From: Ceratodon purpureus
Lineage: Eukaryota; Streptophyta; Bryopsida; Pseudoditrichales; Ditrichaceae
Direction: 5' to 3'
NCBI GenBank assembly: GCA_014871385.1
Contig: CM026426.1
Span: forward strand, 22,984,539-23,048,538
Length of the DNA stretch: 64,000 nt
The first letter of the stretch is position 1. Each line of letters opens with the position of its first letter. The notes under the pieces are model-generated. The model did no database searches, was not told where the DNA came from, and was given only the letters and a program-made list of their open reading frames with translations. Below, piece by piece: positions 1 to 58,450 of this stretch. A program made the translations under genes and the position numbers.

Positions 1-374
1 CCCTCATGTCAACATAGAAGGACCATGTCAAATTGAGGTGAACACCTTAATGTAATCTCACCTCCAAGAGAAGGTGAATCGAAATGTATCTGTAATTACG
101 TTACCTTTTAACCACAGAACAGCCTGACAGTAACATAGACGGATCATGTCAGATTAAGGTGAACACCTTAATTTCGTCCTACCTTCAACAAAAAATCTAT
201 CCAAAGGCAGTAACATAGACGGATCATGTCAGATTAAGGTGAACACCTTAATTTCGTCCCACCTTCAACAAAAAATCTATCCAAAGGTATCTCTAATTAC
301 ACTATCATGTTAACCACACGACTACCTGAGGGTAACATAGGAGGACCACGTAAGATTAAGGTGAACACCTTAAT
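1..374. repeat. Subterminal tandem array with A-type palindromes
   Basis: Four related units, each containing a 20-bp palindrome of the form ATTAAGGTGAACACCTTAAT, lie at 32-51, 153-172, 233-252 and 355-374. Two neighbouring units (about 128-207 and 208-288) are nearly identical over about 80 bp, including the flanking words GTAACATAGACGGATCATG and AATCTATCCAAAGG. The array sits beyond the 3' end of transposase T1. It is probably the subterminal region of Element 1, whose left end would lie just outside the window. Confidence 0.85.
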
Positions 375-462
375 GTCATCTCACCTTCAACAAAAAAATC
401 TATCGAAAGCTAGAGAAACATACCTCACATGATGGAACACCATTCATTAAGAGTCCTCAGCT

Positions 463-3400
463 CTATGCAGTATCTAAATCATCGGATTCAGAAGCAGAGT
501 CCGAGCACCGATCCAAATTATCCTTGGCTATTGCAATTTGCAAAGCTGGGATGCCAATGTTAACAGCTCCAGCTCGAGGTCTCCATGCGGTCAATATGGA
601 GTCTGTGTGTACCCAACATGGTAGTTGTGTCGAATCAGCCCTCCACCTCAACGCACTTCTTCCACTGATATCCCATCCACGATAGAAATCCTGCACTTCG
701 TGGTCCTTCTTGAGAGGTGTGAAATACTGGACATAAATAAGTTTGTAGTGTTCACTCGTTGCTGATAGCTTTGGGTCGGAAAGGGCCAGGGCCAACCACA
801 CAGGTTTTGGCTCCTCTTCACTTTCTCCAGGGCGCAACAAAAGCATGAAGCCTTCGGCACAATCCCGGGCAACTCGAAATGAAGGCTGCGGCCTAGCCCT
901 TGCCGGCCCAATGAAGTGGTCATCTACATCAAACTCCTCCCTTACGCTCCCATCACCATGGAACATATCTCTCGTCCCTCATGTACTCGAGTCGTAGGCC
1001 AAACTCCGTCCAAAAGTTGCTGCGACGGTAATGCAATTGAAGTCGGTAACATAAGCGCGTCTCTCACATTCTTCCAGTACGTAATCAGGTGCCTGTGCCG
1101 TGCAAGATAATTTCCCGAATCATCTTGTGCTGCAAGGGACTCCCAATAGGTGATAAATCCCGCCAAACCCTTCACGATTTCGTCTTTGTTTCGCATTGCA
1201 ATAGGAACAGCTACAAGCGGCTCTCCATCGAGCAACATCTGCTTCCCTGCAATGTCTGTACTCCAAAGTTTTATTCCTTCGGTAGGCATCCAGAGCTCGT
1301 CTGTGCATTGAATCTTAAACTGCATAATCGATTCACCATCGCGCATGGAGAACTTAAACTGTTGCCCTTTAGTGTGCCCGATAAGTTTGTCTCCATCCTT
1401 GGCATTGTATGGCTCAACAAATGCCTTGAAGTCAGGAACTTCCTCAATCAGATGGGGAATTACTTTCCCACAGTTCTCGTCTATGTTCATGTAAGACTCC
1501 ATCAGAGAGGGTAGTGTAGGATAATCATTCTCTCGTAGTTTCATGCTCCACCTACCGAAAGAGGCGTCGATATCTTCATGTGTGTGACCGACAAGTAGAA
1601 ACGATACAAAAACCTCTTCAAAAACACCCTTCGCAACAAGAAGAGACCAGTAGCAAAATACGAACCTACTTTTGTTGTCCTTCAAACAATTGTCAAGTTG
1701 GACATGAAGAACCGGCGGGAGAGGACTCGCATCTGTAGATGCCCTTGAAATGCCTAGAGCTTGAATGCAACTTTCTTTACCCTCTAGCAGTGCGCTAAAC
1801 AACGGAGTCCTTCCAGAATTCTGGAACACGCGGCCATTAGCTGATGCTTTAGGCTGCTCAAGATCTCGGAGAAGTCTTGCAATAGACCCAACAGTATGAT
1901 TCGAATCAGCTTTGTAAAGATCAAGAGCGTAATGAGCATATCGAACATCGCCATGACCATGGGCTATCATACTCGTCACTGACACAGGGAGTTTCATTAG
2001 TCCATCGGTGTTTTTGTTTTTCGTTGCCAAGCATGGTGAAGCCGTTTTCAAATGATCCATTTTATCGTGAATAATAGTCAACACCTGCTCGAGCTTCTGG
2101 ATAGACAGATACCGTGCAGCATAATATGTCTGACGGTGCGCCTCCTGCTCTGCAAGATGGCGGTCTAATAACTTCGCATAAAATGCGTAAGCGGAAGAAC
2201 CCAAAGGATGGGCATCCCTCATTTGCTTCCTCCTATCACAGGTACCACATTGAGCAAACATATCACCTCGGCGTTTGATTATACAGTCGCTGAACTCAAG
2301 GCGCCGGAGAAAGCTCACAGTCAAGGCCGAAATTTCAAGTAACCCCAAAGCAGCGTTCACCTGCACACGAAGTAGCAAAATAGTCAGTATAAGAATTAAG
2401 GTGATCACCTCAATTTGAAGCAGAACACAATCTACAGAGATAAAGAAATTGTATATCAACTGTTATCCATAACAATCAAAAGGCCATGGCCCAAAGACAA
2501 CAATTCAATACCTACAGAAACTCCTACCGAGAAACTAAAGAACCCGCAAGATTATAGAAAAGAATCCGGGCCACACTTAATCAAAAGAGAAAATCAGAAT
2601 TTGGTAATATGAGTCAATATATCGACTTCCAGTTGGACACGATTAAGGTGGCCACCTTAAAACAAAGGAGACATCTGTCGCATTTGCAGTGAAAAAAAAC
2701 AGAATTAAATTATCAAGTAAATAATACCCTTCAATGAAGTTTGAGCTCAGTGGCGGGATTATTAACTGCACGCCACGAAAAAGGAGATCAACAAATTTAC
2801 CTATTCATTCTTAGAAAGGACGCTCGGTTGGAGGCAATGCAATTTAAATTAGTAACAGCGGTTCTGGATCGAAATCCCCATATTAAGGTGTCCACCTTAA
2901 TTCGTATGGCGTACCCATTCCTAAAACTTGTATACATCCGGAGGAATGTAGGTACTACGTCGTACAGAAATGCCTGATACTACTGTAGTAATTCCAAATG
3001 TCATAGAGAAGAGGCTCGGCAATTCACTGATTATTCACTACACACGAAATAAACTATGGTCACGACTTAATTCGGTAAGACACCTTATTGTTCAAAAGAA
3101 AACTTTAAGGTGACATACCATTCAATTCAAGAAAACTCAGCTTTGTTAACATAGACTGTTGAGGCGAACTGAATTCATGTAGCCAAACAACTGCTTTGAT
3201 AACCTTAGTCCCAAGTAAATTAATGCTGAAAAGTTCATCGTCAATGAATGGTACATGATAGACAGAATAGTATCCGAACAGACAACAACTGCACCTGAGG
3301 TTCCGTCTGTGTTGTTTATAGGGATGCTTTCTAAAATGATAGCAATAACAATCTGAAAATGTCAAGTTTGCACATGGGAAAGATTTGACTTCACTGTGGA

Positions 3401-4378
3401 GACGACGTCTTCATATTAAACAATAACTCCGATGTAAAATCAAAGTACTAATAACAATCATTCAGCACGGTATCCTATCCTAATTTCAAATATGCACGTA
3501 TTATCCTCAACATATGCTCAAACCATTCTACATGATTACATCTTACGACTACTCCTATAACGGGGGAATAAATAAAAGAGCACTTGCAATCATGTGTCAA
3601 AATTCTCCAATGGAAAATCAGACACACCTCACTCAGCCTGTTGCGGATATCCTTCCACTTCGTTCCAGCAGGCAGAACACGCTCCACAACTCTTTCACAA
3701 CTCTTTCACCGCTTGTTCTCTAGTGTCACATACTTACGGTCACCACCGGGGCGGACATGCCTGTGAACTTCAAGCTTGATGTGAGATCTTAGTTTGTGAT
3801 CAGATGACCACATCTCATATCTTAAACTTCGAACAACTTCCGGTTCAATCTTCCGGGTACACCTTCTCATACAACACGTCTTCGAGGCAACCTCCCATAT
3901 GGCTTGATCGCTTATCATGCGCTTAAGTTTCTCAAAACGTTGCCTTCTCCGCGTCCGGGTAGAATTGTATTGTCGCCGAGGTCCTTGAAGCTCTCCATTC
4001 GTGCGAGCCAATCTATCCTCCTCAAATACTCTCCCCAGATCAAACAGTGATGGTCTCCGATATTTGACAAGTGTACAAGGCCAGCGGCGAACGGAGTACT
4101 TCTAGTCCGCGGGAACGTGCTCTGGCAAGATCAATTCAAGGATTAGAAACACCTACACCTTTCAAACCGAGTTGACTGTTGTCGACGCAGTCAGCGGGTA
4201 CACAGTTTCGAATGACTCCAGCACCCACAAGGTCACCCTCGGCATTGAAAACTGAAACCTCCAGGTTCAGCCACTCCGATCGAGGAAGTCTTGACTACAA
4301 GGGCTCTGGAATTTCATTGTGCGACTCCATGTCGTTGTCCAGATCAGGCGCACTAGGCTCTCCTTCAGAATCATTCTC
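463..4378 (-). pseudogene. DUF7869-like transposase T1 of Element 1 (decayed)
   Basis: Probable transposase with an RNase H-like fold. The clearest exon runs from 2360 (acceptor GCAG before GTGAACGC) down to 942. It carries HDKMD near the start, then QLDNCLKDNK, then GHTHEDIDASF, the acidic blocks expected of a DDE-type active site. An upstream exon (4378 to 3628) holds a stretch like WLNLEVSVFNAEGDLVGAGV, matching the N-terminal region of T2, and ends LPAGTKWKDIRNRLSE at a GTGTGT donor. The intron between them (3627-2361) contains A-type palindromes and is phase 0, as in T2. Breaks: a frameshift near 950, after which the C-terminal domain continues to 463 (compare GFMLLLRPGES with T2 GSWVLLRPED); a stop in the upstream exon; and an internal deletion near 3710 that removes the helix-turn-helix-like region kept in T2. 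The identity with DUF7869 is from memory and unverified. Confidence 0.75.
2395..2901. repeat. A-type palindromes in T1 intron
   Basis: Three 20-bp palindromes lie in the T1 intron, at 2395-2414 (ATTAAGGTGATCACCTCAAT), 2642-2661 (ATTAAGGTGGCCACCTTAAA) and 2882-2901 (ATTAAGGTGTCCACCTTAAT). Weaker half-sites follow near 3067-3120. Confidence 0.85.
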
Positions 4379-4678
4379 CTACAAGATGGATAAAAATCAA
4401 AACACAATAGTGTTGTATTCCACCCACCCGTTCTTCCGAATCATGGATAAATAAAATTAGAGGCATGATGAATAGAGAGTTCTTCGTATCAGAGTGGACG
4501 CAGCTATTGCAACAGGTGCACTCGTATTATCGCCAGTGAGTGCGGGGTCTGTTAGAGAATATCAGTGCAATTCAATCAACCGTTATCACAAGCATTCAAT
4601 ATGGTCCAAAAATTGGACATCCAAAATAAAACTAAGGGCGATGAAAAAAACCAGTCTAAAAGCCTTGCAGTACCCAGG

Positions 4679-5427
4679 ATTAAGGGGGACCACTTAATAC
4701 TGAAAGCATAAGTCGTCCGTTACAAGTCGCCATGGCCGTGGGTTACTAACTTTCTATACAAAGGAAATTCGAACTATAAACAGAAAATTCAATCAGTCGA
4801 TCGGACCATTTAGAATTGGAGGCACACGAATGGCAGCTTCTTCAATTTCCCCTTCAAAAAGAATCTGCACAAAAATCAACAATTCCCACACGTTTAGCTA
4901 TCTATTTGCGTCAATCTCACCATGCAAGAAATCACATACAGAATGTTCTAAAAATGGGCGGATCTACATAAATTATCTCGTACCTCCTCCGACGCTAAGT
5001 CATGAGTGCCCGCCATTGATTATTTCCCCTACAGACATGGAACGAACAGTTATTTTAGGAACAATTCAGTAACCAGAAATATTCGCACCCAAAGAGGAAC
5101 TGTTACGCTTTTGGGAGACGTCAAAAAGGTATTGTCCAAGATAATAGTAAAAGTAGGAGCAACATTTTCGTTGTCGACATTGATACCGTGACCAGACGCT
5201 CGACGACGTCAAGTGTACCCAAAAATTAAGAGGACCGTCTTAAACCAAAGGTTGCGTAGGGCCGTAGCCACTATCACTGTTGACGTCGCCGACAATAACA
5301 AATCTCTTCATGAAAGATGATGAAACTAATCATTTTTTTCCCAAGACTGTTATCACTAAGTGAATCCAAAATTGCCATGTATTAGCTGCGTTCTTACTAC
5401 GGAGCACAATTAAGATGGTCCTCTGAA
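4679..5427. repeat. A-type palindromes upstream of T1
   Basis: Degenerate palindromes at 4679-4698 (ATTAAGGGGGACCACTTAAT), 5225-5244 (ATTAAGAGGACCGTCTTAAA) and about 5408-5427. They lie on the 5' side of the leftward transposase gene, comparable to the B-type array upstream of T2. Confidence 0.7.
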
Positions 5428-5429
5428 TT

Positions 5430-7640
5430 TATAAACCGTAATGCATGCACCATGCACGCCATGAACCTACAGGATCCACACATGCAGTCCGTGATAACAA
5501 AAACGAGAAATTCACCTCCGTTAACCACATGCATCATCAAAGTTCATAGTGTACTGGCTTGTATATAAAGGCAACCTCCTTAATATAAACGTACTCTGTA
5601 GAAATGAATTCTTGTGACTACAGTATTGCAAGCATTTCTCCTACCAAAAACCATCTCATTTATGAAAACAACTTCTCTCACAGAAAGGTGTTGATTCGGA
5701 AACCATCTATTATGTTATCAAAGAATATGTTATGATGACACTCCAAGGAATTGAAACGGAGACCTGAATACAAACATGAGATAATTTTCCATGAAAATAA
5801 CTCATAGCTTATTTTAGATTTCTGGTATTACAACTGAACTTAACAAAAGAGAAATTTGTTTGTGCAGGTGCCACAGCCGATTCGTGAGAAGAGACGATAC
5901 ACACCTCGTACAAACCAAGCACTGTAGATGAAACATGGAATTGCACGAATGTGGACTGATACTATCAGATTTCAAGTCTTATTACAGGACTACCTTTTCA
6001 TGACGTTGAAGTTCTAGGCAGACTAGTAATGCCCATAGATGCACACTTAACATAAGAGAAATGGTTCGTGGCTCTCTGACTTTGCACGACAAAATAAACT
6101 CATGGACTTCCTAGCTACGAATCATCTTTTGCAAAACACAGTCCTCAATAACTTAAGAATGCTCAAATCGTAACGTATGACTCAAAGCAGCACGAGGAAA
6201 GGAAAGAGAGAGAAACTTACGAAGTTGGAGCTCTGAACAGGTATGCGTCCTGACGTTGTGGGCGACCGTAGAGAAGAATGCAATGGACCTCGAAGCTACA
6301 AGGTTAGCACGCCATGCAAAGGAAAGATGCGGTTCACATTTTGGGACCACTAGTTTATATAGACATGTAATGACATGGAGCCGATATGATGTAAAATCAT
6401 GAAATTGGAGGGAAACTTGCTTTGAAAATTAAACTCCCCTCTAAGAAAAGGTCAAGTTGTTTGATCTCGGATTCTTAGTAATTTACAGCCCTGAAAACGA
6501 CACAACAATCCACCTCCCGAGAATGACAGCTACTACACTGCAACACATGCATTGAAATCTGTGCATTCTAGAATGTGAACGTTCTGTACCAAAAATGGAG
6601 CACTTCATTCTATACTTATCCTACGTACCCACACAATTAAAACAGTCGCCACCAGAGTGCTCAAAGAATAGCAAAGTATGATTCTAGCTATTGCTTTCCA
6701 GAAAGCTACCATAATCTAGCTATTCGTGGAAGAGAAACCGACAAGGTTAAATAAAGATAGGTTAACAATAGCCCAGTGACCAATACATGCAGGAACATGA
6801 GAAGGAGGGCAAAGTTACCCATATATTGATCACATGCATCGCATGAAAATTCTACAACCTCTGGCGACGGAAAAATGTCCAAAAGCTGTTGTTGCATTAA
6901 GTGTCCACTAACACTGTATTGAGAGCAGTAACGCAGCTCTTCTAACAGAGTCAAAACTTTTGCATGCTGGAAAAAAATAAACAGAATTCCATGTCCCAAG
7001 ATTCTTCAGTGATCTAATTGAATCAAAACTCTAGAGTATGGGAGTATCGGAACAGGATTAGGCGGGAACTACTAAAGAGGTCGCCCACATGTACACAGTT
7101 GGTCAGACTCAACGTGGTCCTCGTTGCTTGCGTCCCCTATCTGCTCGAATGCCTGGCCCACTCCTGTAATGTTCACATCCTCTCCACGATGTCCATCGGA
7201 TTCTCTGGCACTCCGGTACTCATAAAACCTGATCACACCTCTGCGGTTACTATCTGAACCATCGTCGGATGGAATCTCGTCCCGTTGACCTGATGAGCCG
7301 TTGGAGATAGGTATTAAAGCACTAATACCACCCATCGCAATTTTCCGGGATCTTGATGAATCGGCCTGGGCCCATCGAGGCAGAGCGCTTCGCGAATTCG
7401 GTGGCAAATTACTACGAGCGACCGGGAGATCTGGGCTAGCTGAACGTCGCAAAATAGAGTTGTTAATGACCCTTGGACGCTCAAGACGATAAGGCGGGCT
7501 GGGGTGTACAAGTGTGAGCTGTCTAGGCTCGGGACCCAAGACCCCATCGCTCCAGCGGCCACGCATCGGCCCATGGCGAGGACGGCAGGGAGCATCCCCA
7601 TGATTTTCACGGCCTAGTTGGTGAAGGTCAGGGATATCGA
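5430..7640. other. No confident gene
   Basis: No recognisable gene and no palindrome of either type was found here. The longest uninterrupted frame (7072-7566, minus, about 164 codons, Arg/Ser-rich) matches no family I know. Other frames overlap it on both strands, so I do not call it. Confidence 0.4.
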
Positions 7641-7642
7641 TA

Positions 7643-8042
7643 CATTAGGAGAAAAATGAGCTCAAAATAAGGCCGTGTAAGCCTGCCCTTTCTAGGTGAA
7701 CTCCCTACTTTGGGCACCTCTGCCGCTGGCAGCGGATGCCAGAGTTGCTGCCCGCACAGAACTGCGTGGCGCACTCACAACAAAGGTCCTCGGAATATTA
7801 GGTGAGACATGAATGCCTCGGCTCGGGCTTTGGTCCCAAGTGGGCAGGTTGTGTCAGCCCGACACTGTAGATGTGCCCTCCACACGCCTCGCTCGGAGGT
7901 CATTGGTTCGAGCCCCCGTGGCGGTTGCTGGCACCACGGTGGCACCTCACATGCCATGTCAAAAAGTACGCGGGCAGCGCCCGTTTTTTTCTCTCACGTG
8001 CCGCTTACACGGCCTTTTTGTGACCTGATTTTTCTCCTAATG
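7643..8042. mobile_element. 400-bp MITE-like element with about 40-bp terminal inverted repeats
   Basis: The left end (7643-7682, CATTAGGAGAAAAAT ... GGCCGTGTAAGC) and the reverse complement of the right end (8003-8042) match at about 36 of 40 positions. There is no coding potential. The interior contains GGTTCGAGCCCCC near 7907, which resembles a Pol III B box, but no convincing A box or tRNA fold. No clean target-site duplication is visible, so the superfamily is not assigned. It lies inside the palindrome-free part of Element 1 and was probably inserted there. Confidence 0.75.
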
Positions 8043-8559
8043 GTTGATGCGACAGCAAGAACTCGTGGCATGGGAGCGGGCGCATCACCCCTTCAGTGCT
8101 CGGAGCGAAGGATATGTTCAGAACGTTGTTTACCGTGTTGAATTGCAACTGACATTGCCGGCTCCATTGCAGTGTTGTGCTTCGATCGAGCAAAGCCAGA
8201 ACGATGTCGTCGTGCTCTGGTAGATAGCAAAAGCCTGTGCGTTCATGGATTGTACGCACTGTGACCATCCATTGCAGTAGTTCAACAACGGACCCTGGAT
8301 GTGAGTGAGGGTTTACTGATATCGGCATTCTGTCTACAAAGAGGAAGATTCTACATGAACAACAGCTTTAGCGGAATGGAGAAAAACAAGGCACTGCTCT
8401 TGAAACCAATGTTGATCATAAACCTAAGTAGTGTTGGTGTTGGAGTAGAAGAGAGAATACGCTCAGATGATGAGAGTCTAGTTCTTACTGTGGCGGATGT
8501 CATATCGATTCTCCAAATTTGTCTCATTCGTGTCTTAGACAAGATGCTATGAATGAAGT

Positions 8560-11325: not shown

Positions 11326-11361
<36 letters not shown>

Positions 11362-11980: not shown

Positions 11981-11984
11981 ACTT

Positions 11985-40842: not shown

Positions 40843-40865
40843 AAAAAAGTCTCATCAAAATTCAG

Positions 40866-47150: not shown

Positions 47151-47159
47151 GACCAAGAA

Positions 47160-48235
47160 CATTTTTATTGCATCAACGGATATCACTGAAGTTTGTTACA
47201 GTGTCCGTACAGTGTATTTTGTTGGAAGAGGTTCTCAGTTCCGTACAGTTTATGTTCAAACCTTAGTGTTTGCAGTATAGAAGAGCTGGAGCTGGTTTTT
47301 AAGCCGGACTGGGAGGTAGGCATTTCGAGATGTGATAAAGGAAAAATGTCACTAAGCACAGAATTTGAGATTAAGAAAAAAACTTCCGGGTCCTCCCAGA
47401 TTCTTGCGGTCCCAGGCCCTCTGGATGAACTCCCTGCCATAGCTGCCTGCAAACTCTGCACGGCGATGGCACGATGCACGGGATGACAAATTTTCGATTA
47501 AGACCGAGAATGACAAATAAGCTCTTGGTCGAGCAATGTCCAAGCATGCACAATTCTAAAGTCATGGAGGACAGAGGCTACTATAGAATTTAAATTGACG
47601 AGAGTTTCATGCACTTGAACGACGTCTACAGACCCCTCGCCCTCATCCGGCGGAATAGAATCCATAGGGCGGAACATACTATCTACAACATTTTGCAGCA
47701 ACAGAACCAATGAAGGTAAAAAAAATGCCACATTGCACGGGAAACAGACCCGATTCGATTAAGAATGTAGAGAAAAAAGTACCTGTGAATGCACTCGCAG
47801 GTGAAAAACCACTCAACCGCTGCTTCGTCTTCTTCCTCAACGCACGCTCCGACAATCTCATTTCTTTGTCCGCCCCCCGATCCAAAAGCTCTCCCTCGAT
47901 CTCGCTTAGTGCACCTCCCAAACTCAGACCTCTCAAATGCGACCTAAAAGAAACCTCTCACTTGCCTCCCAAACACCTCGAATCTCGCCCTAAACCTCCC
48001 GACCACGAATTAAGCACCCTGAAACTGCCAAGCACCTCTAAATTGCCCTAAACCTCCCTCGCAACTCGACACAAACGCAATCACGACGACCTAAGACTCT
48101 CGGTAGGGAAGCGGGAAACTCGGAGCGACCTACAGCATACCAGGCGCGAAAGCGAGGTAGAGCGAGGTAGAGCGAAGGAAAAACACTCGAGCGACGCCGT
48201 CTTAGCACTGTACAGTGGAGAACTTAGTACCATAT
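47160..48235. other. Putative leader/promoter region of gene P2
   Basis: Moderately GC-rich, C-rich on the plus strand (CCTCCCAAACACCTCGAATC), with only short overlapping frames. The position matches 12-13.4 kb in Element 1. No gene is called. Confidence 0.3.
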
Positions 48236-48239
48236 TAAA

Positions 48240-50065
48240 AAAGAAAACGGGTTAGGACGTTCTTGGAGGAGAACGACGTACATTAAGGGGCACCAATCTC
48301 TGGCTCATGAGTGCATGCAGTCAATTGAAGTGACCCCTTGATATTAATTGCAAATTAATGAACGATGGGAAATGAACAAAGAAAATAGAAAATTAAATTG
48401 GATATTCAGAATAACGAAAAAATATATATAAAATAGAATGAAGTGAATTAAAAGAGTTTAATGGGATTACTTTTAAAAGTAATTGAGAATTAAAAATTAA
48501 AAAAAAACTAAAAAAACTAAAAATAAAAAATAAGAAATCAAATATAAAAGAGAACCGAATGAAATATAAACGAGAAGGAATTACATTCGATAAGAATTAA
48601 AAGAAAACTCATAATAGGAAATAATGATATCACGGGCATAAAAGAAAATGCACATTGAAAAATAAAAGATAAATAAATGATAGATAAAAGAGAAGCGAAT
48701 GCAAATGGTGGAAAAGAGAATGCCATGTTAAAAGAGACGGCAATTAACTTAAAAAGAAAAATGAAATTAAAAACAACTAATATGGAGTACGCCTTTCGAG
48801 ATTTCATGAATTAGATAGATCCTCAAGAGATTTATGTCACATACTAGAAGATGCAATAATAGATACTTCCAGATAAATAAACCTGGAGCTCGAAGAACTT
48901 ATATGGAGTTTCCCTTATAGGTTGTCCTACCGTCATCCACATGGTACCGCGCATGGATTATAACTCTAACATTCTCAAAAAACCACCATTAACTTTTTTT
49001 ATATATATAATTTTCATTTGAATACCTTAAATAGTGGCAACCACTACTGATTTATTGCAAGATATAAATCATCCTCACGTTTTCATACTCGATAAATCAG
49101 ACTCATAGTAGATCCAACAACAGTCATTATGAAATCATTATTTTTAAAAAGAAAATGGTACAAGTCATTTTTCTTTGAAATTAGTTTCACGCGAACTGTT
49201 AAGTCATTCATTTTACCCTTATATTATCTTCTTAAAATTTCCCGTCATAAATAAGAGTACCATGTTATCAGAAAATGACCCGTTATAAATTAAATTCAAT
49301 GATAACAAAGGTTAGGTGATATAAAGATACCTTAATTACAATATAGCATTTTTATACAACGTTACTTCGACGCTTTTTAAAGAAAATACTTACATGTGTG
49401 ACTTAATTACATAAACCATTCATATCATAATTGAGATTGAATTCAATTTTTACTTTGTGATGCACCGTATTTAAAATACCAACACACTAAATCCCTAGAA
49501 AATTACTTGAAAGAGTCACGATTAAAAATTCACGTTTTGAAGAGTCACGTTTTGAAGAGTCACTCATTTTCACAACGTGAAAGGTCACAGGAATGAATAT
49601 AAAAAAAAAAAAAAAAAAAAAAACATTTGAATGGTGTGTAAATGCAAAATGGGGGCATTTGGTGATGCTTGTCATTTACTTCAAGACACTATAAATTAAA
49701 TTGACCCTTACGAGATTTATGTGACTTCCAAAAAAAAAAAAAAAAACATTTGAATGGTGTGTAAATGCAAAATGGGGGCAAATTTTGGTGATGCTTGTCA
49801 TTTACTTCAAGACACTATAAATTAAATTGACCCTTACGAGATTTATGTGACTTCCAAAAAAAAAAAAAAAACATTTGAATGGTGTGTAAATGCAAAATGG
49901 GGGCAAATTTTGGTGATGCTTGTCATTTACTTCAAGACACCATAAATTAAATTGACCCTTACAAGATTTATGTGATTTCAGAAAAAAAAAAAAAAAAAAT
50001 ATGTGAATGGTGTGTAAATTAGATAGTCCCTCCAAAGTTTTATGTGACCTCGAAAATTCTAAAAT
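48240..50065. other. AT-rich core of Element 2
   Basis: An AT-rich stretch with long A runs, no B-type palindromes and no credible gene (the frames at 48,538-48,807 and 49,487-49,675 are low-complexity). It lies between the two divergent arms, like the AT-rich core of Element 1. Confidence 0.6.
49600..50050. repeat. About 125-bp tandem repeat headed by A runs
   Basis: Units start with 14-23 A residues, then CATTTGAATGGTGTGTAAAT, and end GAGATTTATGTGACTTCC. CATTTGAATGG recurs at about 49,624, 49,747 and 49,872, with a diverged fourth copy near 50,000. Near-identity of units two and three suggests recent expansion. Confidence 0.88.
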
Positions 50066-50069
50066 AGAT

Positions 50070-50150
50070 AAACCCTAAACCCTAAACCGTAACCCTTAAA
50101 CTCTGAACCCTGAAACCCTGAACCCTGAAACCTTGAACCCTGAACCCTCA
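50070..50150. repeat. Interstitial telomere-type repeats
   Basis: AAACCCTAAACCCTAAACC, followed by degenerate GAACCCTGAAACCCTGAACC units. This is the plant-type telomere motif (TTTAGGG on the other strand). A short opposite-strand stretch (TTTAGGGTTCAGGGTTTAGG) lies at about 55,869. Both are inside Element 2, so they are not chromosome-end sequence in the usual sense. Confidence 0.75.
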
Positions 50151-50159
50151 AGCTTGAAC

Positions 50160-51160
50160 TCAGAAATGGCCTATTACGCCAGCACTCCCATGAAAAGTGT
50201 GGGAACAGAAACGTGACTTAAAGGACGTGGTACGTGACTCTAATAAATCATGCCCTGGTGTGGCTATCTACGTAACAGATCTTGACATATAAATACATCT
50301 TGGTCCTTCGTAGAGAGCGACTATCGTACAGTAGTGGACCAGGTGATGATATGGACACTCCTACAGAAGTAGGGGGGACAGATCGAGATTCGCTGCATCA
50401 TGAAATGGAAATCACTTTCACGAAAGTACTGCTGGATGGTTTATGCATCATGACATGTATGTTCCCTTCAAATTCAAACCTGAAGGGCTCGATCTTGTTT
50501 CCCCCTTCTGAATTGGCGGGGATTCTCCGTTTGAATTCTCTGCTGGACCGCCATCTCCTGATTCATTCACATCAATTCAGAGCAGTCTCCTCAGAGTTGT
50601 TTCATTAGCGCGTTTCAGAGTACCAGTTTCCTGCAACATAGCATGTCGTAGACGGGTTGTAGAACCTTGGACTGGTGGTAGAACCTGAGATTAGAGGGTT
50701 GCGGGGGACCGAGGATGGAATTGAGGTGCCGGAGAATCATTCGAGGAGGCGGAGGGAGCATCTGCTCCGGTGTTTAGAGTGGCCGATTACATTTGCAGGG
50801 AGCGCAGGTATGATCTCGGTCTTTCCTTGGAAGATCTTTTGTCAATCGGGTTTATTTCATTGCTCTTGAAGGGTGTGTTCTATCTCCTGTACACGTTACA
50901 TGTGCTGATCATGTGATCCATCGCGGAATCCCCTATTGTAAGTAGAATTGTTCATGTAGTTCTCCGCCGATTATGTAGAATTTGCAAAGGTATCGGGGAA
51001 TTTCTAGTTAAGATCAACCCTTGCATGTTGCATATTGGTGGAATGAACTGCACTTCTGTGATTTCCGTGTTGTTGTAGAAATTATTCTGTACGGACAGGA
51101 ATTTCACTGTACGGACAGGGGGTGGCGAGGTGGAGGCTGCTTCTTAGTGGACCCAACTAC
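50160..51160. other. 5' region of T2, no clear gene
   Basis: Several short plus-strand frames (50,282-50,608; 50,675-50,869) without recognisable domains. It is probably untranslated leader or intron of the T2 transcription unit. Confidence 0.3.
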
Positions 51161-51163
51161 ACT

Positions 51164-51471
51164 CATCGGGAGATCCCTCGATGCTGCTTTGGAGATCATA
51201 ATCGAGAGACACTCATCGGGAGATCCCCCGATCCTATAGAAGTTAGACCCTCATCGAGAGATCCCCCGATACTTCTTTGGAGATCCTCATCGAGAGACCC
51301 CCATCGGGAGATCCCCCGATCCTAAAGGATTTAGACCATAATCGAGAGATCCCTCGATACTTCATTGGAGATCCTCATCGGGAGATCCCCCGATCCTATC
51401 GAATTAAGACCCTCATCGGGAGATCCCTCGATCCAATAGAATTTAGAATCGCATCGAGAGATCCCCCGATA
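51164..51471. promoter_or_regulatory. Dense B-type array directly upstream of T2
   Basis: At least eight palindromes in about 310 bp (51,164, 51,214, 51,252, 51,302, 51,340, 51,376, 51,414, 51,452), spaced about 38-50 bp apart, with TTGGAGATC and TTTAGA(C/A) spacers. The last ends about 20 bp before the T2 ATG at 51,492. The close, regular spacing next to the start suggests an operator-like or transposase-binding array. That role is inferred. Confidence 0.85.
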
Positions 51472-51491
51472 CTTCTTTGGCTCTCGTGAAA

Positions 51492-54400
51492 ATGGACTCT
51501 GAGAGTGACAGTGACGGTCCCCAGATGCCGTCTGTGGGTCCTTCCCGTCACGACTTCTCTCAGGAATCAACTGCTCGCTCAGATGAGCTTCGACCCGGGC
51601 AGTCTGTGAAGCTTGTCGTCCCCCGTTTCGGAGATGTTGGAATCGGATCTGTTGTCGACGTTAATCCTTCTGGGCAGTGGCTTGGGGTTTGCATTCCACC
51701 TGGCTCTTCAGAATTTATTCTTGTGTGACCATCAAGCATCGTGTCGGACGCAGAGGACCTCTTCCTCGAACCACGCCAGAGAGGCTGCATCGTTTTGCGG
51801 GATGCTTTGAATCGAACAGTCCTCTGGAGAGCTGGTGATGCGATTGCATTGTTGCAGGATCCTCCCACGAACGATGTTGAATACGTTTGTCAACAATCCT
51901 GGATTGGTCTGGAAGTTCAGAAAGTGGACCTTGCGGGTGCGGTTATAGCCTCCGGTAGAGTGTTCTGCTCAGAAGCGGAGGAGTATTTCCGAGACGGAAG
52001 ATTGGGCGAGGGATACATTGGAGTGACAATCCTCGACGTCTTTGTCGGGGACACTGATGCCATAATGAGTAATGAGCGTTGGTTGATATCTGAATGCAAA
52101 TTCCCGAACGGCCCTTCTCTTTGGTCAACAGTAGAGCACTTCTCCCGAATCCCAATGGAGGTAGATCCACAGGAGCACCTTGGAGGCAGACGGAAGGCAC
52201 CTTACCGGTTTATAGTGCGGAAACCTAAAACGCATGAAAAACGTTTGCTGTACAATACGAAGACAGCGGATGCTGAAGTGAGGAACGTTAGCTCCGAACA
52301 ATGTTGCTCGAAGCATTGCTGTCAGACATTTCCCCAGGAGCTCACGCTAATAGTGCGTAAGAAATTCTATTCGAAATCCTTTCAGGGAAGACGGGAATAC
52401 GGGATTGCGGCGGGTGGACAGATGCATTCAGTCGACGGTGACCGTAGGAGGAAGTTCTTGACGCTGCATGGTTTGGAAGTTTGCGCAACTGCGTGGTATC
52501 TTATTCACGGAGTTCCCAAGTCAACATTTCATAGCTATGTCCAAAGATACAACGAAGGGGTTCTATCAACAGCGCATGGAAACAAGGGCTACAAGCGATT
52601 GAGGATCGGAACAGTTCAAGTCATGGGTACTATTGCTGCTATTGTAGACGAGAATGCAGATCAGATGCCCCATTAAATGCGAGGAATCGGAAATGGACGA
52701 GTGGACACTCTGAAATATCTTCCAGCAGGCAACAACTGGAAGCGGGTGATGGCTGACGCCAATGAGGTATGAGTCTTTGCTTCGCGTTCCTTGTAGTGTC
52801 ATTCCATCGGGAGATCTCCCGATAGAGGTTACTTTCGTATTGACAGTCACTCCTATATCTTACAGTATCGTTGCACTCTACCTACGTCATGCAATATAGA
52901 ACTCTTTTTCTCGTCTTCGGTGATTTGTCTGAATTTATCGTCTAATACTTCGAGCTTGTTTGCTTGCGTGCGTCTCTTTCTTTTCCTCACCAGCCATTTG
53001 AACGTACCGGTGCTTTGCAGACAAATGTTTCATTAGGTCTGCCTACACTGAGCTAGTCTACAATTAGTAGAATTAGAAGTTCACTCTTCAACAATATCGC
53101 AATCAAACCGGTTGGAAGTTCTTTTGCGAAATGCTCGACATGTGACCAACTTCAAGAATTCATTCTGAAGTCAGCCAACGGAAGTCCAGAATATGTTGAC
53201 TTCGTGAAGCAACGGGAGGAGCATCTTGCTCACCAAGCCTCTTGTTGTCGTCTGTATGGTGCATGGCGCGAAGAATCAAAGCGCAATCCCAGTGAGATTC
53301 TGTGCATCATTCATGACAAGATGGATACTGCAAAAACCGCCCTTCCCCGGATGCGGGTTACAACAAAGGCTACTCAAGGTTTGGGCCAAATTCCCATGAA
53401 CGTCACTGGTATGGTTTCACACGGGCACGGGGATGGCGCTTATGCACATTACTGTCCTCACTGTTGGCCAGGAGATTCTAACGCCACAATATCGTCGTTG
53501 GCGAGGCTGTTCCGTCGACTGGAAGGCCCCTCATTTCGGGAGTCTGGGAAACTATTTGAGTACCCCCCGCAAAACTCAATGTTCGAGACATTGTTGAGGG
53601 GGAAGTCTAGGTGCCTCGACATTTTACCGCGTATCGAGGGATCCCCCGATGTCCCAGGGTCGAAACCTTTACCGAGGAAGTTATACCTTCAACTGGATAA
53701 CTCCGCCAAAGATAACAAGAACCAATATCTCATGGCGTTTCTCTCCCTTCTGACTGCACGGGGTGTTTTGAAGGAAATTCAGGCTGGATTTCTATTAGTG
53801 GGTCATACGCACGAAGATATTGACGCTTATTTTAGCCATTTGTCGAAGGCATTAAAAAGCAAGAATACGTTCGTTCTAGCGGATCTAATGAAGGCCTTCA
53901 TGCAGTCCCAGGAGTTGTCATTCATGCCGGAGTTCATTCAAGAGGTTGCAGACTTCAAGTCTTTCATCAAAGGCTATCAAAGTAGTGGTGCAGCACGCCT
54001 TATTGGACTTGGAGAGATGCACCTTTTCAAGTTCTATGTGGACGATGATGGTTGGCCGGTTATGAGGTACAAGAAATCAGCCGTCGACCTACAATGGCTA
54101 CCCCTCAACAGACCCCCTATTCGATTGTGGAATGAAAACATGGATGGCGGCCCAAAACTTCCTCACGGCTCACCGAAGCCGGTTCCGTTCAAACCTGTGT
54201 GGGGAAGTGAGGTTCCTAAATCTACTGGGAATCAGGTGAAGGCGAGAGATAACGCAGCCAAAGCCACTGAAAACAAGAAATTCATGAAGTGCGGACTCCA
54301 AAAGTACATTGAGTATTGGAAAAATGGAATGGCAAAATGCGAGGGATTTGCAGCAGCTTTTGGGCCTTATGTTGACTACTGGACTCGTTTGTTGTCTGAG

Positions 54401-54934
54401 ATTGATAAGCCTTTGCCAGTGACAAATCCTGAATTGTTAGAGGGTTTCTGGCCCCGCTATGACTGGAGGGACGTATCCAACGGAGTACCGCGCCCAAGAT
54501 TTTTACAATTTTTACTTGAGGATGTGACTCATAAGGATGAGGAACCAGAAGCGTATTGTGGCCCAGCAAACCAAGCTCCGGAGAGTCCTTTCAATCCGTG
54601 GCGTGATATTCGGCCTGGCAGTTGGGTTCTTTTGAGACCTGAAGATCCACTCATTTGTCCTGTATGGCAGGGAAGAGCAGCGATTGCTGTATGCAGAGAG
54701 GAAGGCCATGTAAACCATGGGAAATTTTTAATTCAGTTTTGGGAACCTCGTAGCGCGGAAAGAGACCTTGCATTGAAATACCGTAACAATTGGTCTGCTA
54801 AGTGGGTAGTAGAGACGCGTGCTCCGGAGTGGGTCTCTGTTGGTGCAGCTCTGTTTCAAAATTGGTCAAAAATCAAGGACCCGTCCACTAGAACCATTCC
54901 TAAGAAATCTATGGAGGCTGCTTTAGCAAACTAA
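51492..54934 (+). pseudogene. DUF7869-like transposase T2 of Element 2 (three in-frame stops)
   Basis: Two exons, 51,492-52,766 (GTATGA donor) and 53,021-54,934 (TTTGCAG acceptor), phase 0, about 1,060 residues. The N-terminus (MDSESDSDGPQM) leads to strand-rich blocks (PGQSVKLVVPRFGDVGIGSV; VASGRVF-like IASGRVFCSEAEEYFRDGRL) reminiscent of a domain in plant En/Spm-type proteins. A helix-turn-helix-like segment follows (CATAWYLIHGVPKSTFHSYV). The catalytic blocks are HDKMDTAK, LQLDNSAKDNKN and GHTHEDIDAYF. The C-terminal domain includes GSWVLLRPED and FLIQFWEPRS. A B-type palindrome lies in the intron (52,805-52,824) and another inside exon 2 (53,632-53,651, read as RIEGSPDV). Stops at 51,726 (TGA), 52,674 (TAA) and 53,054 (TAG) leave the frame otherwise open. 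About half of the core residues match T1 by eye. Confidence 0.82.
53632..53651. repeat. B-type palindrome inside T2 coding exon
   Basis: TATCGAGGGATCCCCCGATG is read in frame as (R)IEGSPD(V) between ILPR and PGSKP of T2. T1 has a different sequence at this point, so the palindrome looks like an in-frame insertion into a surface loop. Confidence 0.88.
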
Positions 54935-54957
54935 GAGAGAGCTAACGTAGTTGATCC

Positions 54958-55048
54958 ATGATCCTCTATGCCACTTAGGCTCGACAGACGGTCATCCCTC
55001 AATGATTACATCTGAGTCACCTGTCTTCCTCATTCTCTATTAAAGAAA
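54958..55048. repeat. Direct repeat, copy 1 (second copy 57,138-57,228)
   Basis: About 90 bp beginning GATCCTCTATGCC and containing a degraded B palindrome, then ATTACATCTGAGTCACCTG and TTCCTCATTCTCTATTAAAG. A close copy lies at 57,138-57,228, and a partial one near 58,060-58,145. The first two copies flank the gene at 56.1 kb. Confidence 0.85.
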
Positions 55049-56090
55049 TAAGAGTCATCACTGCTTGACCGTTTCTCATCCCCGTGTAATATCATCCTTC
55101 CTCGTGCCAATGATGTTTGTTTCTGAGATTTGTGACACTTTAAGAACCATGACGATCATGACTACGCAACGTGGAGACTGGTTGTGGAAGCAGATGGAGT
55201 AGTGGGAAACTGGAGGAAGGAAGTAGAAGCTTTCAGAACAAGGGGGGAAGGAGAAAAACTGCAGATTCATACGCCCAGTTCATTTGGTGTCGATAAACTT
55301 GAAGTCCGAGCGTTCTGTTCAGCAGCGACTTTGGTAGCGGCAGTAGAAAGCAACGCAAGTTCCCGAGCAGGTGAGAGCAATGCACACATGCAGGGGCCAT
55401 GGCCAATCGACTTTAGTTTTTAGTTGAAATTCTCTTCTTTGCGTTTTTGGTTGTGTTGCGTATCGAGTCTGTTGGGTTCTTGAGCAATTAGCAACACGAG
55501 TCATTGAGATTAGCTGGTGTATTAGTTTGAGCAGATACGGTTGGCATGTAATTAGGTTTTGGTCCACTGGAGTCGTCGTTTTCCTAATACATATGGACAT
55601 ACAATGTCGACAGCCTGATCCCACTGTATGTTGTTGCATTTTTGTCTAAGTTTTATCACTGTTATCGTGACGAGTTGAGCGGGTTTCATTTGTTGAGGTA
55701 AAGACGCAGTTGCTTGATGTGTACTTGAGACATTTGTTGGGCTACTTGTTCACGAATTGGTAGTTTGTTTGAGGGGTACTACTGATAACACATGTCGATC
55801 GAATACTTTTGTTGAGGTGGAAATTTGGCTAAGTGCTGCGATGAACTTGTAGAAAAAAGGATTTACTGTTTAGGGTTCAGGGTTTAGGGCTCTGGAGGTG
55901 GATTTACATTCATATACATCATGTGTTTCAGTTGAAGGGTTTGAGATAACATATCTTGTCATCAGTTTTTTAGTTTCTTTGAAGTGTGTTGTGGTTATTG
56001 GTTCTTTCGGATCTGGTTTTATGAACTTCATGTGGGTCTAGAATTTTCTAATCTTTTTCTCTTGAATTTTTTTTTCTACACTTCCCAGGT

Positions 56091-56678
56091 ATGGAACAGG
56101 ATCCGACTCTCAAGAAGGGGAAGATGATGATGATTGAGGATGGTTCAACCTCCCAGAAGGAACCCCAGTTGGTCTTCAATGGAGATTGCGAGAAACCAGA
56201 ACTTCCAGTCTGGAGAGATTCAACAGCAAGGAGAGGTGGAGAGTTTCAATTCATGAAAGATGCACCTGTCAACCTGCCATGCCTACGACATTGGCTGAAG
56301 GATCTGAAGACATTTCAAGAGACAACAAAGTATGAAGTTCCTGATTATGACAAAGTTTCTGGGATGAATTGTGAAGGATGGGATGGAACTTGGAGCTCCA
56401 TTGTTTTGAGGCAATTTGTGGCCGTTGCAAATGCAACTGGGGTGATGCACCCTCCAAGGAACAAGAAGAACCAACTCGACTACATGAGGAATCAGGTCCT
56501 TTCCATCATGAAGCACCTGGAAGAGACAATGGAGATAGAAGGGACAATGGAGACAGAGCCAGCTCCAGCTCCAACAGTGCCAACTCCGACAATGGCAACT
56601 CCGAAAGCGACTGGATATTCTTTCGCCAAATATCAAGCCGCCATCAACAAAATGGAAGAAAACCGCAAGGACCTGTAA
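56091..56678 (+). CDS. Hypothetical 195-residue protein of Element 2
   Basis: An intact frame from ATG at 56,091, right after an acceptor-like TTCCCAGGT, so an untranslated 5' exon is possible. Residues about 40-150 look globular (LPCLRHWLKDLKTFQETTKY; SSIVLRQFVAVANATGVMHP; LDYMRNQVLSIMKHLEE). A Pro/Thr-rich linker and a short helical tail (FAKYQAAINKMEENRKDL) follow. I do not recognise the family. It lies between direct repeats (54,958 and 57,138) downstream of T2, which suggests it came in with a duplication or insertion. No counterpart is visible in Element 1, where the equivalent position is off-window. Confidence 0.55.
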   Translation: MEQDPTLKKGKMMMIEDGSTSQKEPQLVFNGDCEKPELPVWRDSTARRGGEFQFMKDAPVNLPCLRHWLKDLKTFQETTKYEVPDYDKVSGMNCEGWDGTWSSIVLRQFVAVANATGVMHPPRNKKNQLDYMRNQVLSIMKHLEETMEIEGTMETEPAPAPTVPTPTMATPKATGYSFAKYQAAINKMEENRKDL

Positions 56679-56719
56679 GTGTGGTGGATGCCTTACGAGG
56701 AGGACTTTACTTCTGATGT

Positions 56720-57860
56720 AGCGGATATGTTGTAGTCAGAGACTTCAGGTGCCATTGAGGCAGGTTTTGTAGTTGTATGTTTCAGCGGACACGTAGGAGA
56801 TTTTGTGTAAAAACATTCCTACTGTTCTCGTTCTCTGGACAATTCTGTTTAAGTACTTTCACAGACTTTAGTTGCCATTGAGCCCGGTTTAGAATTTTGA
56901 CTAGATGACATGAAGTACTCGTAATTGTAAATTCTCAATCTGTAATGGTGGTTGTATGAGCACGATTACTTGAATTTGTTAAATAGGTTTGAATGTGTGA
57001 ATATCGCAATGCACTGGATCGGCAGGACGTAATTGACCGATTGCAAAATTAAAATAAATTAATTCCTCAGAAAACACAAACTAACATCGCACAGAAAATA
57101 ACGCCCTAAACCAAAACTGTTTACAGTTTTTTGATCGGAGATCCTATATGCTGTTTAGGTACGACATCAAGAGATCCCTCGATGATTACGTCTGAGTCAC
57201 CTGACTTCCTCATTCTCTATTAAAGAACGCCCTCCTCATGTTTTCATAGTAATAGATTACATTTGCTGTATGTCTTGCGCAGAATTCCATTGCCTGATGC
57301 TGAGTTCGTGGTGATTATCAAGAGGATGAGTCCGTGCTTTAGACCTGCACTTCTCGGTTTTAATCCCTAAACTTCATACCATCTGATCCTGTTTTCCTCT
57401 TTGCTTCTGAACTTGCAGGCATTTTCCACATGCTTAACTTCTTGCTGCTAATCAGCTCAGATATCGGAAGGGGACTTTAGCAAGTAGTTAGCAAGACCGT
57501 TATATCCTACGATGTTTGGTAACCATAGATGTAAAAACAGATCACTTTCATCTTTTTGTATCTCTTGTCGAAGGTGTCCCTCGTGTGGGTTGTGAACTAC
57601 TTTTTGAATGGAATGCCTTCAAAACAAAGTTGCTTTGAATAATAAACAGAGTTTCATTTGATGCTTTCATATTTGTATATTTTGTATTCTAAGATTTCCA
57701 TGGTTTAGAATAAATTTAGTAGTAGCAAATCTAGAATAGTTTCAAAACTGCTTCACATTATAATATGTCGGTCATGTTTGATATTGGGGTATTGCGTGAA
57801 AAATACTTCCGAGGCCGCAAGCCTTGTACCTGATTGTATGTTTGCCATGTGATATCCATG
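56720..57860. other. Non-coding, with a direct-repeat copy
   Basis: No gene is seen. It includes the second direct-repeat copy (57,138-57,228) with a B-type palindrome at 57,165-57,184 (CATCAAGAGATCCCTCGATG) and AT-rich sequence to 57.8 kb. Confidence 0.5.
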
Positions 57861-57872
57861 GTTCTACTCTGA

Positions 57873-58450
57873 CATCGCAGGATCCCCCGATGAATGGTAG
57901 AGTACTTCCGAGCCCACATCTCTTCCTCTCTTCCGTTGGTCACTGTTGATGCAGTGGTGTATGCAACTTAGCAAAGACATGGATCCGACGTGTAGAATCA
58001 TTCCCAAGATAGCCATGGAATCTACGTTAGCAAATGTATAAGGAGACAATGTTTCTGATCGGAGACCCTATGTGCTGTTTAGGTACGACATCGGGAGATC
58101 CCACGACGAGTCCGTCTGAGTTAATTCTCTTCCTGAGATAATTCTCTTCCTTCTGATCGGAGATCCTATGTGCCCCCATCTCTTCTATTCATTTGTATTA
58201 CCGTAATCCCAATGTATGTATATCTCGGTCAAGTTGGGTGCTGGGGATCCCGTGATGAATATTGTAGAGCCGAAATCTCTTCTGTTTTCCGTTCCTTGCT
58301 CGCAATGTACGTATAATTATCTGGGTCAGGTTTGCTATCGGGGGATCTCGTGACACATACTGTGGAGCCCAAATGTCCTCTGCTCTTTAATATCTCGCTC
58401 GCAATTTACTTATATCTTGGTCAAGTTCGGTGTCGAGAGATCCCGTGATG
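57873..58450. repeat. Right subterminal B-type repeats of Element 2
   Basis: Degenerate sites at 57,873-57,892 (CATCGCAGGATCCCCCGATG), 58,088-58,107, about 58,240, about 58,336 and about 58,431. The last three lie in repeating units that also contain TATATCT(C/T)GGTCAAGTT-like words. They end about 100 bp before the right inverted repeat. Confidence 0.75.
57955..58042 (+). pseudogene. Duplicated 3' end of T2
   Basis: The sequence encodes KDMDPTCRIIPKIAMESTLA and aligns with the T2 C-terminus (KDPSTRTIPKKSMEAALAN), followed by the same downstream words as after T2 (GGAGACCCTATGTGCTGTTTAGG). It is an older, diverged duplicate of the gene's last codons and 3' flank. Confidence 0.7.

What the first reader, a model, noticed from the sequence alone, without database searches (positions are those of the whole stretch)
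32..58450. Each element carries its own dispersed 20-bp palindrome
ATTAAGGTGGCCACCTTAAT-type sites (about two dozen) are confined to Element 1, apart from one copy at 38,396. CATCGGGGGATCCCCCGATG-type sites (about 40) are confined to Element 2. Both are used in the same contexts: subterminal arrays, introns of P and T, clusters upstream of the P and T starts, and coding exons. Same deployment with a different word suggests co-evolution of a DNA-binding factor with its site, like the subterminal TnpA sites of En/Spm but longer, perfectly palindromic and spread across the whole element.
Basis: partly seen in the sequence, partly recalled or inferred. Interest (0 to 1): 0.92.

Follow-up and report, generated by a model that had tools for sequence, protein, structure and literature searches.

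The report
Private palindromic codes of two transposons
Two related giant DNA transposons lying near each other each carry their own 20-letter palindrome in dozens of copies, probably the docking site of a protein that each one makes to control itself; this would show jumping genes evolving private address codes.

Summary
A scan finds 27 strong sites of the first palindrome (26 in Element 1, one at 38,396) and 36 of the second (all in Element 2); motif-blind clustering of near-palindromic 20-mers recovers these two families and nothing else above shuffle level. Element 2 is a complete insertion (38,469-58,575; 24-bp perfect terminal repeats; AT duplication). Both elements carry divergent T (DUF7869) and P (FCP1/NIF-like) genes; T cores are 35-38% identical, and all four genes look broken. 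Conservation is largely confined to the 20 bp, half-sites vary without compensation (against RNA hairpins), and sites ride on unrelated tandem repeats. Placement agrees between the elements (rho 0.75, p 0.003), but mostly because both avoid exons and the intergenic core; among non-coding compartments alone the density agreement is not significant. Only 1 of 62 sites is perfectly palindromic. Best reading: docking sites of a lineage-specific dimeric protein encoded by the element (P favoured over T), working like Arabidopsis VANC anti-silencing sites or En/Spm TnpA sites, in an element that fits neither family. No binding, genome-wide or phylogenetic data could be obtained; there is only one pair of elements.

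The parts
1..22106 (.). Element 1 (partial): T1 gene on the minus strand, P1 gene on the plus strand; left end taken to lie outside the window, right end not located (22,106 is only the P1 stop)
   Evidence: gene content; no copy of the Element 2 terminal repeat here with up to 3 mismatches and no convincing local alignment
38469..58575 (.). Element 2 (20,107 bp): 24-bp perfect terminal inverted repeats GCCATATTTAACTATTTCTGGACT, flanked by a 2-bp AT duplication
38469..38492 (+). Left terminal inverted repeat of Element 2
58552..58575 (-). Right terminal inverted repeat of Element 2
32..374 (.). 4 type-1 sites (32, 153, 233, 355) 3' of T1, in tandem repeats of 80/201 bp
2395..2901 (.). 3 type-1 sites (2395, 2642, 2882) in the T1 intron 2361-3627
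   Evidence: GT-AG ends
4679..5584 (.). 4 degenerate type-1 sites (4679, 5225, 5409, 5565) in the unresolved 5' region of T1
13430..14008 (.). 5 type-1 sites, 71-649 bp upstream of the P1 start (14,079)
15554..15805 (.). 3 type-1 sites in the probable P1 intron after the GQHTV exon
17423..17442 (.). Type-1 site inside P1; exon or intron status unresolved
18870..19144 (.). 4 type-1 sites in a P1 open frame, in 84-bp tandem repeats (encoding GIKESTLIL and similar)
20456..20786 (.). 2 type-1 sites between the two NIF-like exons of P1
   Evidence: P1 NIF1 exon recognised only by its match to P2 (E 0.004), not by Pfam
38602..38714 (.). 2 degenerate type-2 sites in the left subterminal region (third, weak copy at 38,787), in 92-bp tandem repeats
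39717..39786 (.). 2 type-2 sites between the two NIF-domain exons of P2
40866..40999 (.). 3 type-2 sites in a 57-bp tandem array just 5' of the NIF1 exon of P2
41996..42015 (.). Type-2 site inside a P2 coding exon (LSGDIPM)
43261..43344 (.). 2 type-2 sites in a probable P2 intron
45011..45159 (.). 3 type-2 sites in the probable P2 intron after the GQHTV exon, the counterpart of 15,554-15,805
46568..47150 (.). 8 type-2 sites, 86-668 bp upstream of the P2 start (46,482, minus strand)
51164..51471 (.). 8 type-2 sites, 21-328 bp upstream of the T2 start (51,492), in 38/88-bp tandem repeats
52805..52824 (.). Type-2 site in the T2 intron 52767-53020, at the same place in the protein as the T1 intron
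53632..53651 (.). Type-2 site in the T2 coding exon (RIEGSPDV)
57165..58450 (.). 5 type-2 sites (57165, 57873, 58089, 58336, 58431) in the right flank of Element 2
463..4294 (-). T1 gene: DUF7869 domain; 5' part broken and lacking the putative helix-turn-helix stretch present in T2
   Evidence: DUF7869 E 2.5e-41
51492..54934 (+). T2 gene: DUF7869 domain, interrupted by apparent nonsense codons
   Evidence: DUF7869 E 3.9e-43
14079..22106 (+). P1 gene: NQIK...GQHTV exon, low-complexity middle, NIF-like domains; contains an apparent nonsense codon
   Evidence: NIF2 E 6.3e-10; NIF1 only by match to P2
39065..46482 (-). P2 gene: same order, two NIF-like domains; contains an apparent nonsense codon
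   Evidence: NIF1 in two exons, E 4.2e-07 and 2e-07; NIF2 E 0.0021, below cut-off
38379..38429 (.). Exception: three overlapping type-1-like sites (one strong, two weak) just outside Element 2, in the open frame it inserted into

Best explanation
The palindromes are cis-acting docking sites for a dimeric, lineage-specific DNA-binding protein that each transposon encodes for itself, most probably the fast-diverging P protein. Each half-site is about 9 bp around a central dinucleotide. The protein binds clusters in front of P and T, in their introns and near the ends, and so controls expression of the element's own genes or counters host silencing of its own copies, as VANC proteins do for VANDAL elements. 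When the protein changed its specificity, sites in the same kinds of places were replaced by the new word through local tandem duplication. Shown here: two word families, their separation, similar contexts, conservation largely confined to the 20 bp, uncompensated half-sites, association with tandem arrays. Inferred: the protein, its dimeric state, that it is P rather than T, the regulatory or anti-silencing role, and the replacement history.
For: Strict separation. Similar contexts despite different words: density rho 0.75, rotation p 0.003; collapsed arrays rho 0.72, p 0.006, and rho 0.85 without the two least certain compartments. Matching single compartments: P intron after the GQHTV exon 3 and 3 sites; NIF1-NIF2 intron 2 and 2; T intron 3 and 1; P upstream kilobase 5 and 8. 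With one representative per array, information is 0.3-1.9 bits inside the 20 bp and mostly near 0 outside (flank columns of 0.4-0.9 occur in Element 1 and one of 0.5 in Element 2). Half-sites vary independently: Element 1 has 207 complementary pairs of 260 against 205.4 with shuffled halves; Element 2 has 277 of 360 against 286.3, fewer than expected. 6 of 8 tandem arrays of period 30 or more in the elements hold sites (rotation mean 1.9, p 0.001), and masked arrays share no sequence at E 0.01. P1 and P2 match each other less than T1 and T2 do (BLASTP E 0.001, 8e-4 and 0.004 for P pieces; 5e-81 for T). VANC sites show the same kinds of placement and tandem-repeat growth (PMC5735166, passages).
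Against: Restricted to the 8 non-coding or mixed compartments, densities do not correlate significantly (rho 0.30, p 0.27) and occupancy agrees in 7 of 8 (p 0.07): the placement agreement is largely avoidance of exons and intergenic core, which other non-coding features could share. Compartment borders were set with the sites already known. No DNA-binding domain was recognised above cut-off in the P pieces scanned. The only candidate in T2 is a sub-threshold HTH_psq match (E 0.16) and a low-confidence helical model (mean pLDDT 42). All four P and T genes look broken, so these copies cannot show current function. Six of 62 sites lie in coding exons, whereas the VANC21 motif is mainly non-coding (PMC5735166). 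One type-1 cluster lies outside any P/T element (38,379-38,429). CpG content shows no clear trace of silencing or protection (o/e 0.82 and 0.79 in the elements, 0.71 and 0.53 outside). n is one pair of elements.
Confidence: 0.47

Rival explanations
1. The sites are bound by the transposase T itself (or a T-derived product) and serve mainly to assemble the transposition complex and repress T, as TnpA does on the subterminal repeats of En/Spm; internal sites are by-products or help compact a 20-kb element.
For: Both elements have sites in flanking regions (4 in Element 1 next to T1; 2 left and 5 right in Element 2). T2 has a helix-turn-helix-like stretch (weak). TNPA-type proteins bind subterminal repeats, need them for transposition and regulate their own gene, and the repeats differ between CACTA families (PMC2613891, passages).
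Against: Most sites are not terminal; the largest clusters lie in front of P and T and in introns. The end-proximal sites of Element 2 are among its weakest (38,602; 38,695; 58,336; 58,431). T1 lacks the HTH-like stretch, though this copy is degenerate.
Confidence: 0.3
2. The palindromes act in RNA as hairpins, or in DNA as cruciforms.
For: Single sites fold as short hairpins (z -0.8 to -3.9 in the 6 tested), as any palindrome would.
Against: No compensatory pairing: complementarity equals the shuffled-halves expectation in Element 1 and is below it in Element 2. Many sites lie upstream of the start codons. No Rfam family reaches its gathering score in the window.
Confidence: 0.04
3. Neutral repeats: one short sequence in each element was copied about by slippage and duplication and has no function, or is bound by a host factor unrelated to the element.
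For: Many sites lie in tandem repeats, the genes are broken, and placement agreement weakens to non-significance once exons are set aside.
Against: Copied repeats would share flanks; masked arrays share no sequence and conservation largely stops at the 20-bp edges. Element 2 has no type-1 site above chance and Element 1 no type-2 site. A host factor does not easily explain two words in similar places in two related elements.
Confidence: 0.12

Closest known systems
VANC / VANDAL anti-silencing system of Arabidopsis (PMC5735166 passages; PMC10398659 abstract and outline)
   Same: Each element lineage has its own short motif, clustered in upstream regions, introns and terminal non-coding DNA, growing through tandem repeats; related families use different motifs; motif and protein are proposed to coevolve.
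   Different: VANC21 motif is 9 bp (YAGTATTAY) and arrayed in one orientation; here it is a 20-bp palindrome, also found in some exons. No MULE transposase domain appeared in the Pfam scans; VANC homology was not searched directly; binding and hypomethylation are untested here.
En/Spm (CACTA) subterminal repeats bound by TnpA; soybean Tgmt* (PMC2613891 passages)
   Same: Large element with a transposase and a second function; family-specific repeats thought to coevolve with a binding protein; sites also near the ends.
   Different: En/Spm sites are subterminal; here most are internal. Ends here are GCCAT..ATGGC, not CACTA/CA..TG; no CxxC between the inferred second and third catalytic acids; duplication is 2 bp, 3 bp in Tgmt*.
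DUF7869 proteins (Pfam PF25273)
   Same: T1 and T2 both match far above the cut-off (141.8 and 147.7 bits, cut-off 26).
   Different: The family is of unknown function; 0 papers in the held library contain the word DUF7869. The link to a delimited transposon with a phosphatase-like gene is not described in anything that searches listed (titles and abstracts seen), but Repbase and Dfam are not held.

Membership tests
En/Spm and allies (CMCT clade) | Termini 5'-CA..TG-3' (in most cases; PMC12730594) | tested here: not met
   Element 2 termini GCCATATTT..AAATATGGC
En/Spm and allies (CMCT clade) | Target duplication of 2-5 bp (PMC12730594) | tested here: met
   2-bp AT, a single insertion
[quoted passage not shown]
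   No CxxC between the inferred D213 and E252 of T2; catalytic residues are inferred from conservation in two sequences only
VANDAL (Mutator-like elements) | MULE-type transposase domain | tested here: not met
   In the T and P pieces scanned, only DUF7869 and NIF exceed the Pfam cut-off
VANC-type anti-silencing sites (functional analogy) | Lineage-specific motif confined to the element lineage | tested here: met
   one pair of elements in one window, with one type-1 exception at 38,396
VANC-type anti-silencing sites (functional analogy) | Motifs in upstream regions, introns and terminal non-coding DNA, carried on tandem repeats | tested here: met
   6 of 62 element sites lie in coding exons
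VANC-type anti-silencing sites (functional analogy) | Motif bound by the element's protein; loss of silencing follows | not testable with these tools
   Needs binding and methylation data
Zisupton (KDZ) | 8-bp target duplication (PMC12730594) | tested here: not met
   2-bp AT
DDE/RNase H-type transposase (T) | RNase H fold with three catalytic acids | tested here: inconclusive
   Conserved IHDKMD, QLDN and HTHEDID in T1 and T2; strand/helix order suggestive but the model is poor (mean pLDDT 33)
FCP1/NIF-type HAD phosphatase (P) | NIF domain above the Pfam cut-off | tested here: met
   P1 NIF2 39.4 bits, P2 NIF1 30.2 and 31.3 bits in two exons (cut-off 21.8); P2 NIF2 18.2 bits, below it; P1 NIF1 exon no Pfam match, only a match to P2 (E 0.004)
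FCP1/NIF-type HAD phosphatase (P) | Catalytic DxDx(T/V) motif (recalled) | tested here: not met
   Read directly: P2 NIF1 VVLDLNGVLV keeps the first D only; P2 NIF2 IVLSINGVLC and P1 NIF2 LLIFYLNHVLC lack it; P1 NIF1 motif not found; likely inactive, not assayed

The most novel reading that the evidence does not exclude
An undescribed superfamily of giant DNA transposons (DUF7869 transposase plus a phosphatase-like protein P) in which every lineage carries a private 20-bp palindromic address, read by its own P; P, a probably inactive CTD-phosphatase-like protein, recruits or shields the transcription machinery on its own copies only.
Probability: 0.25. Interest if true: 0.82.

Novelty: new variant of a known kind. 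Interest (0 to 1): 0.62.

Why it matters
How a transposon tells its own copies from its relatives', and how a binding protein and dozens of sites can change specificity together, are open questions. Here two related elements use different words in similar places, which makes protein-site co-evolution directly testable: clone two proteins per element and swap the words.

Tried and rejected
Genome-wide counts and a T/P phylogeny: no genome is held for the window. Relatives of T: none found in viral contigs or genome contigs; no PDB sequence match for the T alignment. Relatives of P were not searched for in these collections. Both words in viral contigs: type 1 found 0 stretches, type 2 found 2 contigs with a single site each, taken as chance. 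Structure predictions of the T2 core with T1 (mean pLDDT 33) and of the T2 stretch with the putative helix-turn-helix (42) were too poor for a fold search, so none was run. A ParB/sulfiredoxin-like domain in P, suggested to me by the GQHTV motif (recalled), found no support in Pfam, NCBIfam or PHROGs and was dropped. PDB searches with the NIF2 domains gave none or two chance matches. A home-made gene finder gave approximate P exons, but its T2 model used a wrong start frame and was discarded; T exons were read by hand. CpG depletion as a test of silencing or protection was uninformative. RNA families: 0 matches at gathering score. The Element 1 right end was not found with the Element 2 terminal repeat. 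A test restricted to non-coding compartments went against a strong reading of matched placement; after it I lowered the best explanation from 0.50 to 0.47 and raised the neutral rival from 0.10 to 0.12. Literature searches for palindromic or dispersed transposon sites listed no report of this arrangement; searches served the comparisons.


Full report
What was checked. The two words were searched with mismatches, with symmetrised weight matrices scored against shuffled windows, and without any prior motif, by clustering every 20-mer with at least 7 of 10 self-complementary pairs and all four bases. All agree. Type 1 (ATTAAGGTGnnCACCTTAAT) has 27 strong sites, 26 at 32-20,786 and one at 38,396. 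Type 2 (CATCGRGRGATCYCYCGATG) has 36 strong sites, all at 38,602-58,450. The motif-blind run returned 34 and 25 members for these two families and nothing else above 3, the level also seen in 5 shuffles. The 16 kb between the elements and the 5.4 kb on the right hold other, apparently mobile-element, genes (a gag by Pfam; the rest by inference) but no third family and no type-2 site; the only strong type-1 site there is 38,396, with two weak ones beside it.

The elements. Element 2 is complete: 38,469-58,575, 20,107 bp, 24-bp perfect terminal inverted repeats, AT on both sides. Joining the flanks with a single AT keeps one reading frame across the junction in an open frame of a third apparent mobile element. 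This is supporting but weak evidence (one chance in three), and stops follow shortly after, at the type-1-like array. Element 1 appears cut by the window start and its right end was not found. Both carry two divergent genes. T has a DUF7869 domain (E 2.5e-41 and 3.9e-43; 35% identity over 472 residues; 38%). T1 and T2 also match in their N-terminal parts (E 5e-4 and 0.002) and C-terminal parts (E 5e-5). P has NIF/FCP1-like phosphatase domains (P2 NIF1 in two exons, P1 NIF2 above cut-off; P2 NIF2 below it; P1 NIF1 seen only by its match to P2, E 0.004) and a shared NQIK...GQHTV stretch (E 8e-4). The copies look degenerate: apparent nonsense codons interrupt T2, P1 and P2, and T1 is broken in its 5' part and lacks a stretch present in T2.

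Placement. With gene landmarks as a ruler, 14 compartments were matched between the elements. Site densities correlate (Spearman 0.75) and 12 of 14 compartments agree on being occupied or empty; random rotation of the sites gives p 0.003 and 0.014. After collapsing arrays to single clusters the values are 0.72, p 0.006 and p 0.02; with the doubtful NIF1 region merged (12 compartments) 0.70, p 0.011, and 10 of 12, p 0.04. Specific matches: upstream kilobase of P 5 and 8 sites; P intron after the GQHTV exon 3 and 3; intron between the NIF exons 2 and 2; T intron 3 and 1; none in either intergenic stretch (7.1 and 3.5 kb); none in the P first exon, the NIF exons or the T N-terminal exon. The exons used are depleted (4 of 26, p 0.04; 2 of 36, p 1e-6). 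The important limit: among the 8 non-coding or mixed compartments alone the densities do not correlate significantly (rho 0.30, p 0.27) and 7 of 8 agree on occupancy (p 0.07). So the demonstrated agreement is mainly that both elements keep sites out of exons and out of the intergenic core; agreement intron by intron is suggestive, not proven. Compartments were also drawn when sites were already known, and exon borders are partly approximate.

Nature of the sites. One representative per array shows information largely confined to the 20 bp, apart from flank columns of 0.4-0.9 bits in Element 1 and one of 0.5 in Element 2. The two halves vary independently in Element 1 and slightly against each other in Element 2. 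This is expected of a dimer reading two half-sites and not of a conserved hairpin or cruciform. Only 1 of 62 sites is a perfect palindrome. Six of 8 tandem arrays of period 30 or more within the elements contain sites (p 0.001), and with the sites masked the arrays share no sequence at E 0.01. So separate local duplications each took up a palindrome, rather than one repeat spreading.

Mechanism. A trans-acting protein specific to each element is the simplest cause of two words in similar contexts in two related elements. I favour P because P1 and P2 have diverged far more than T1 and T2 and because sites concentrate in front of and inside the genes rather than at the ends. T is the main rival: it has a weak hint of a helix-turn-helix (E 0.16) and transposases often bind subterminal repeats. 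No DNA-binding domain was recognised above cut-off in the P pieces scanned. The second NIF domain in both P proteins lacks the first catalytic aspartate of the recalled DxDx(T/V) signature, so P may act as a binding or scaffold protein. All of this is inference; no binding was measured.

Comparison. VANC proteins of Arabidopsis VANDAL elements bind short lineage-specific motifs in upstream regions, introns and terminal non-coding DNA; the motifs grow by tandem repeats and differ between families (PMC5735166, passages; PMC10398659, abstract and outline). The contexts and the tandem growth here are alike, but the motif is longer, palindromic and sometimes exonic, and the element is no MULE by the Pfam domains found or by duplication length (9 bp recalled for MULEs). 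En/Spm repeats and TnpA (PMC2613891, passages) are the second analogue; ends and motifs of T do not fit that clade as described in PMC12730594 (passages). No paper in the held library contains DUF7869; searches for transposons with NIF/FCP1-type proteins and for eukaryotic superfamilies listed nothing matching, judged from titles and abstracts.

Limits. One pair of elements, one window, no host genome, no relatives of T in the collections tried, poor structure models. The host is not identified; a Pre-SET/SET open frame and a TAAACCC-type repeat would fit a plant, by inference.

Noticed in passing
38,379-38,429: Three overlapping type-1-like palindromes, partly a 17-bp tandem, in the open frame that Element 2 inserted into, 40-90 bp from its left end; a 20-nt exact match between 38,417-38,436 and 2,388-2,407 of Element 1 overlaps it. 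Origin unexplained.
   Followed up: partly
37,306-38,466 and 58,578-58,900: A third, apparently mobile-element, gene on the minus strand interrupted by Element 2; no Pfam match for 37,309-38,385.
   Followed up: partly
50,069-50,148 and 49,607-50,019: Degenerate TAAACCC-type (plant telomere-like, recalled) repeat next to a 125-bp tandem repeat in the intergenic part of Element 2.
   Followed up: no
7,643-8,042: Inverted repeat of 40-nt arms, 90% complementary, 320 nt apart: looks like a small MITE inside Element 1.
   Followed up: no
26,291-29,307: Long open frames of another apparent mobile-element protein without a Pfam match above cut-off.
   Followed up: no
35,091-35,885: Pre-SET plus SET domain open frame, histone methyltransferase-like.
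   Followed up: no
62,313-63,452: Ty3-type gag with a zinc-knuckle-like stretch (below cut-off) and a protease-like region.
   Followed up: no
56,052-56,678: Extra open frame in the right flank of Element 2 without a Pfam match; no BLASTP match among the Element 1 open frames at E 1e-3.
   Followed up: no
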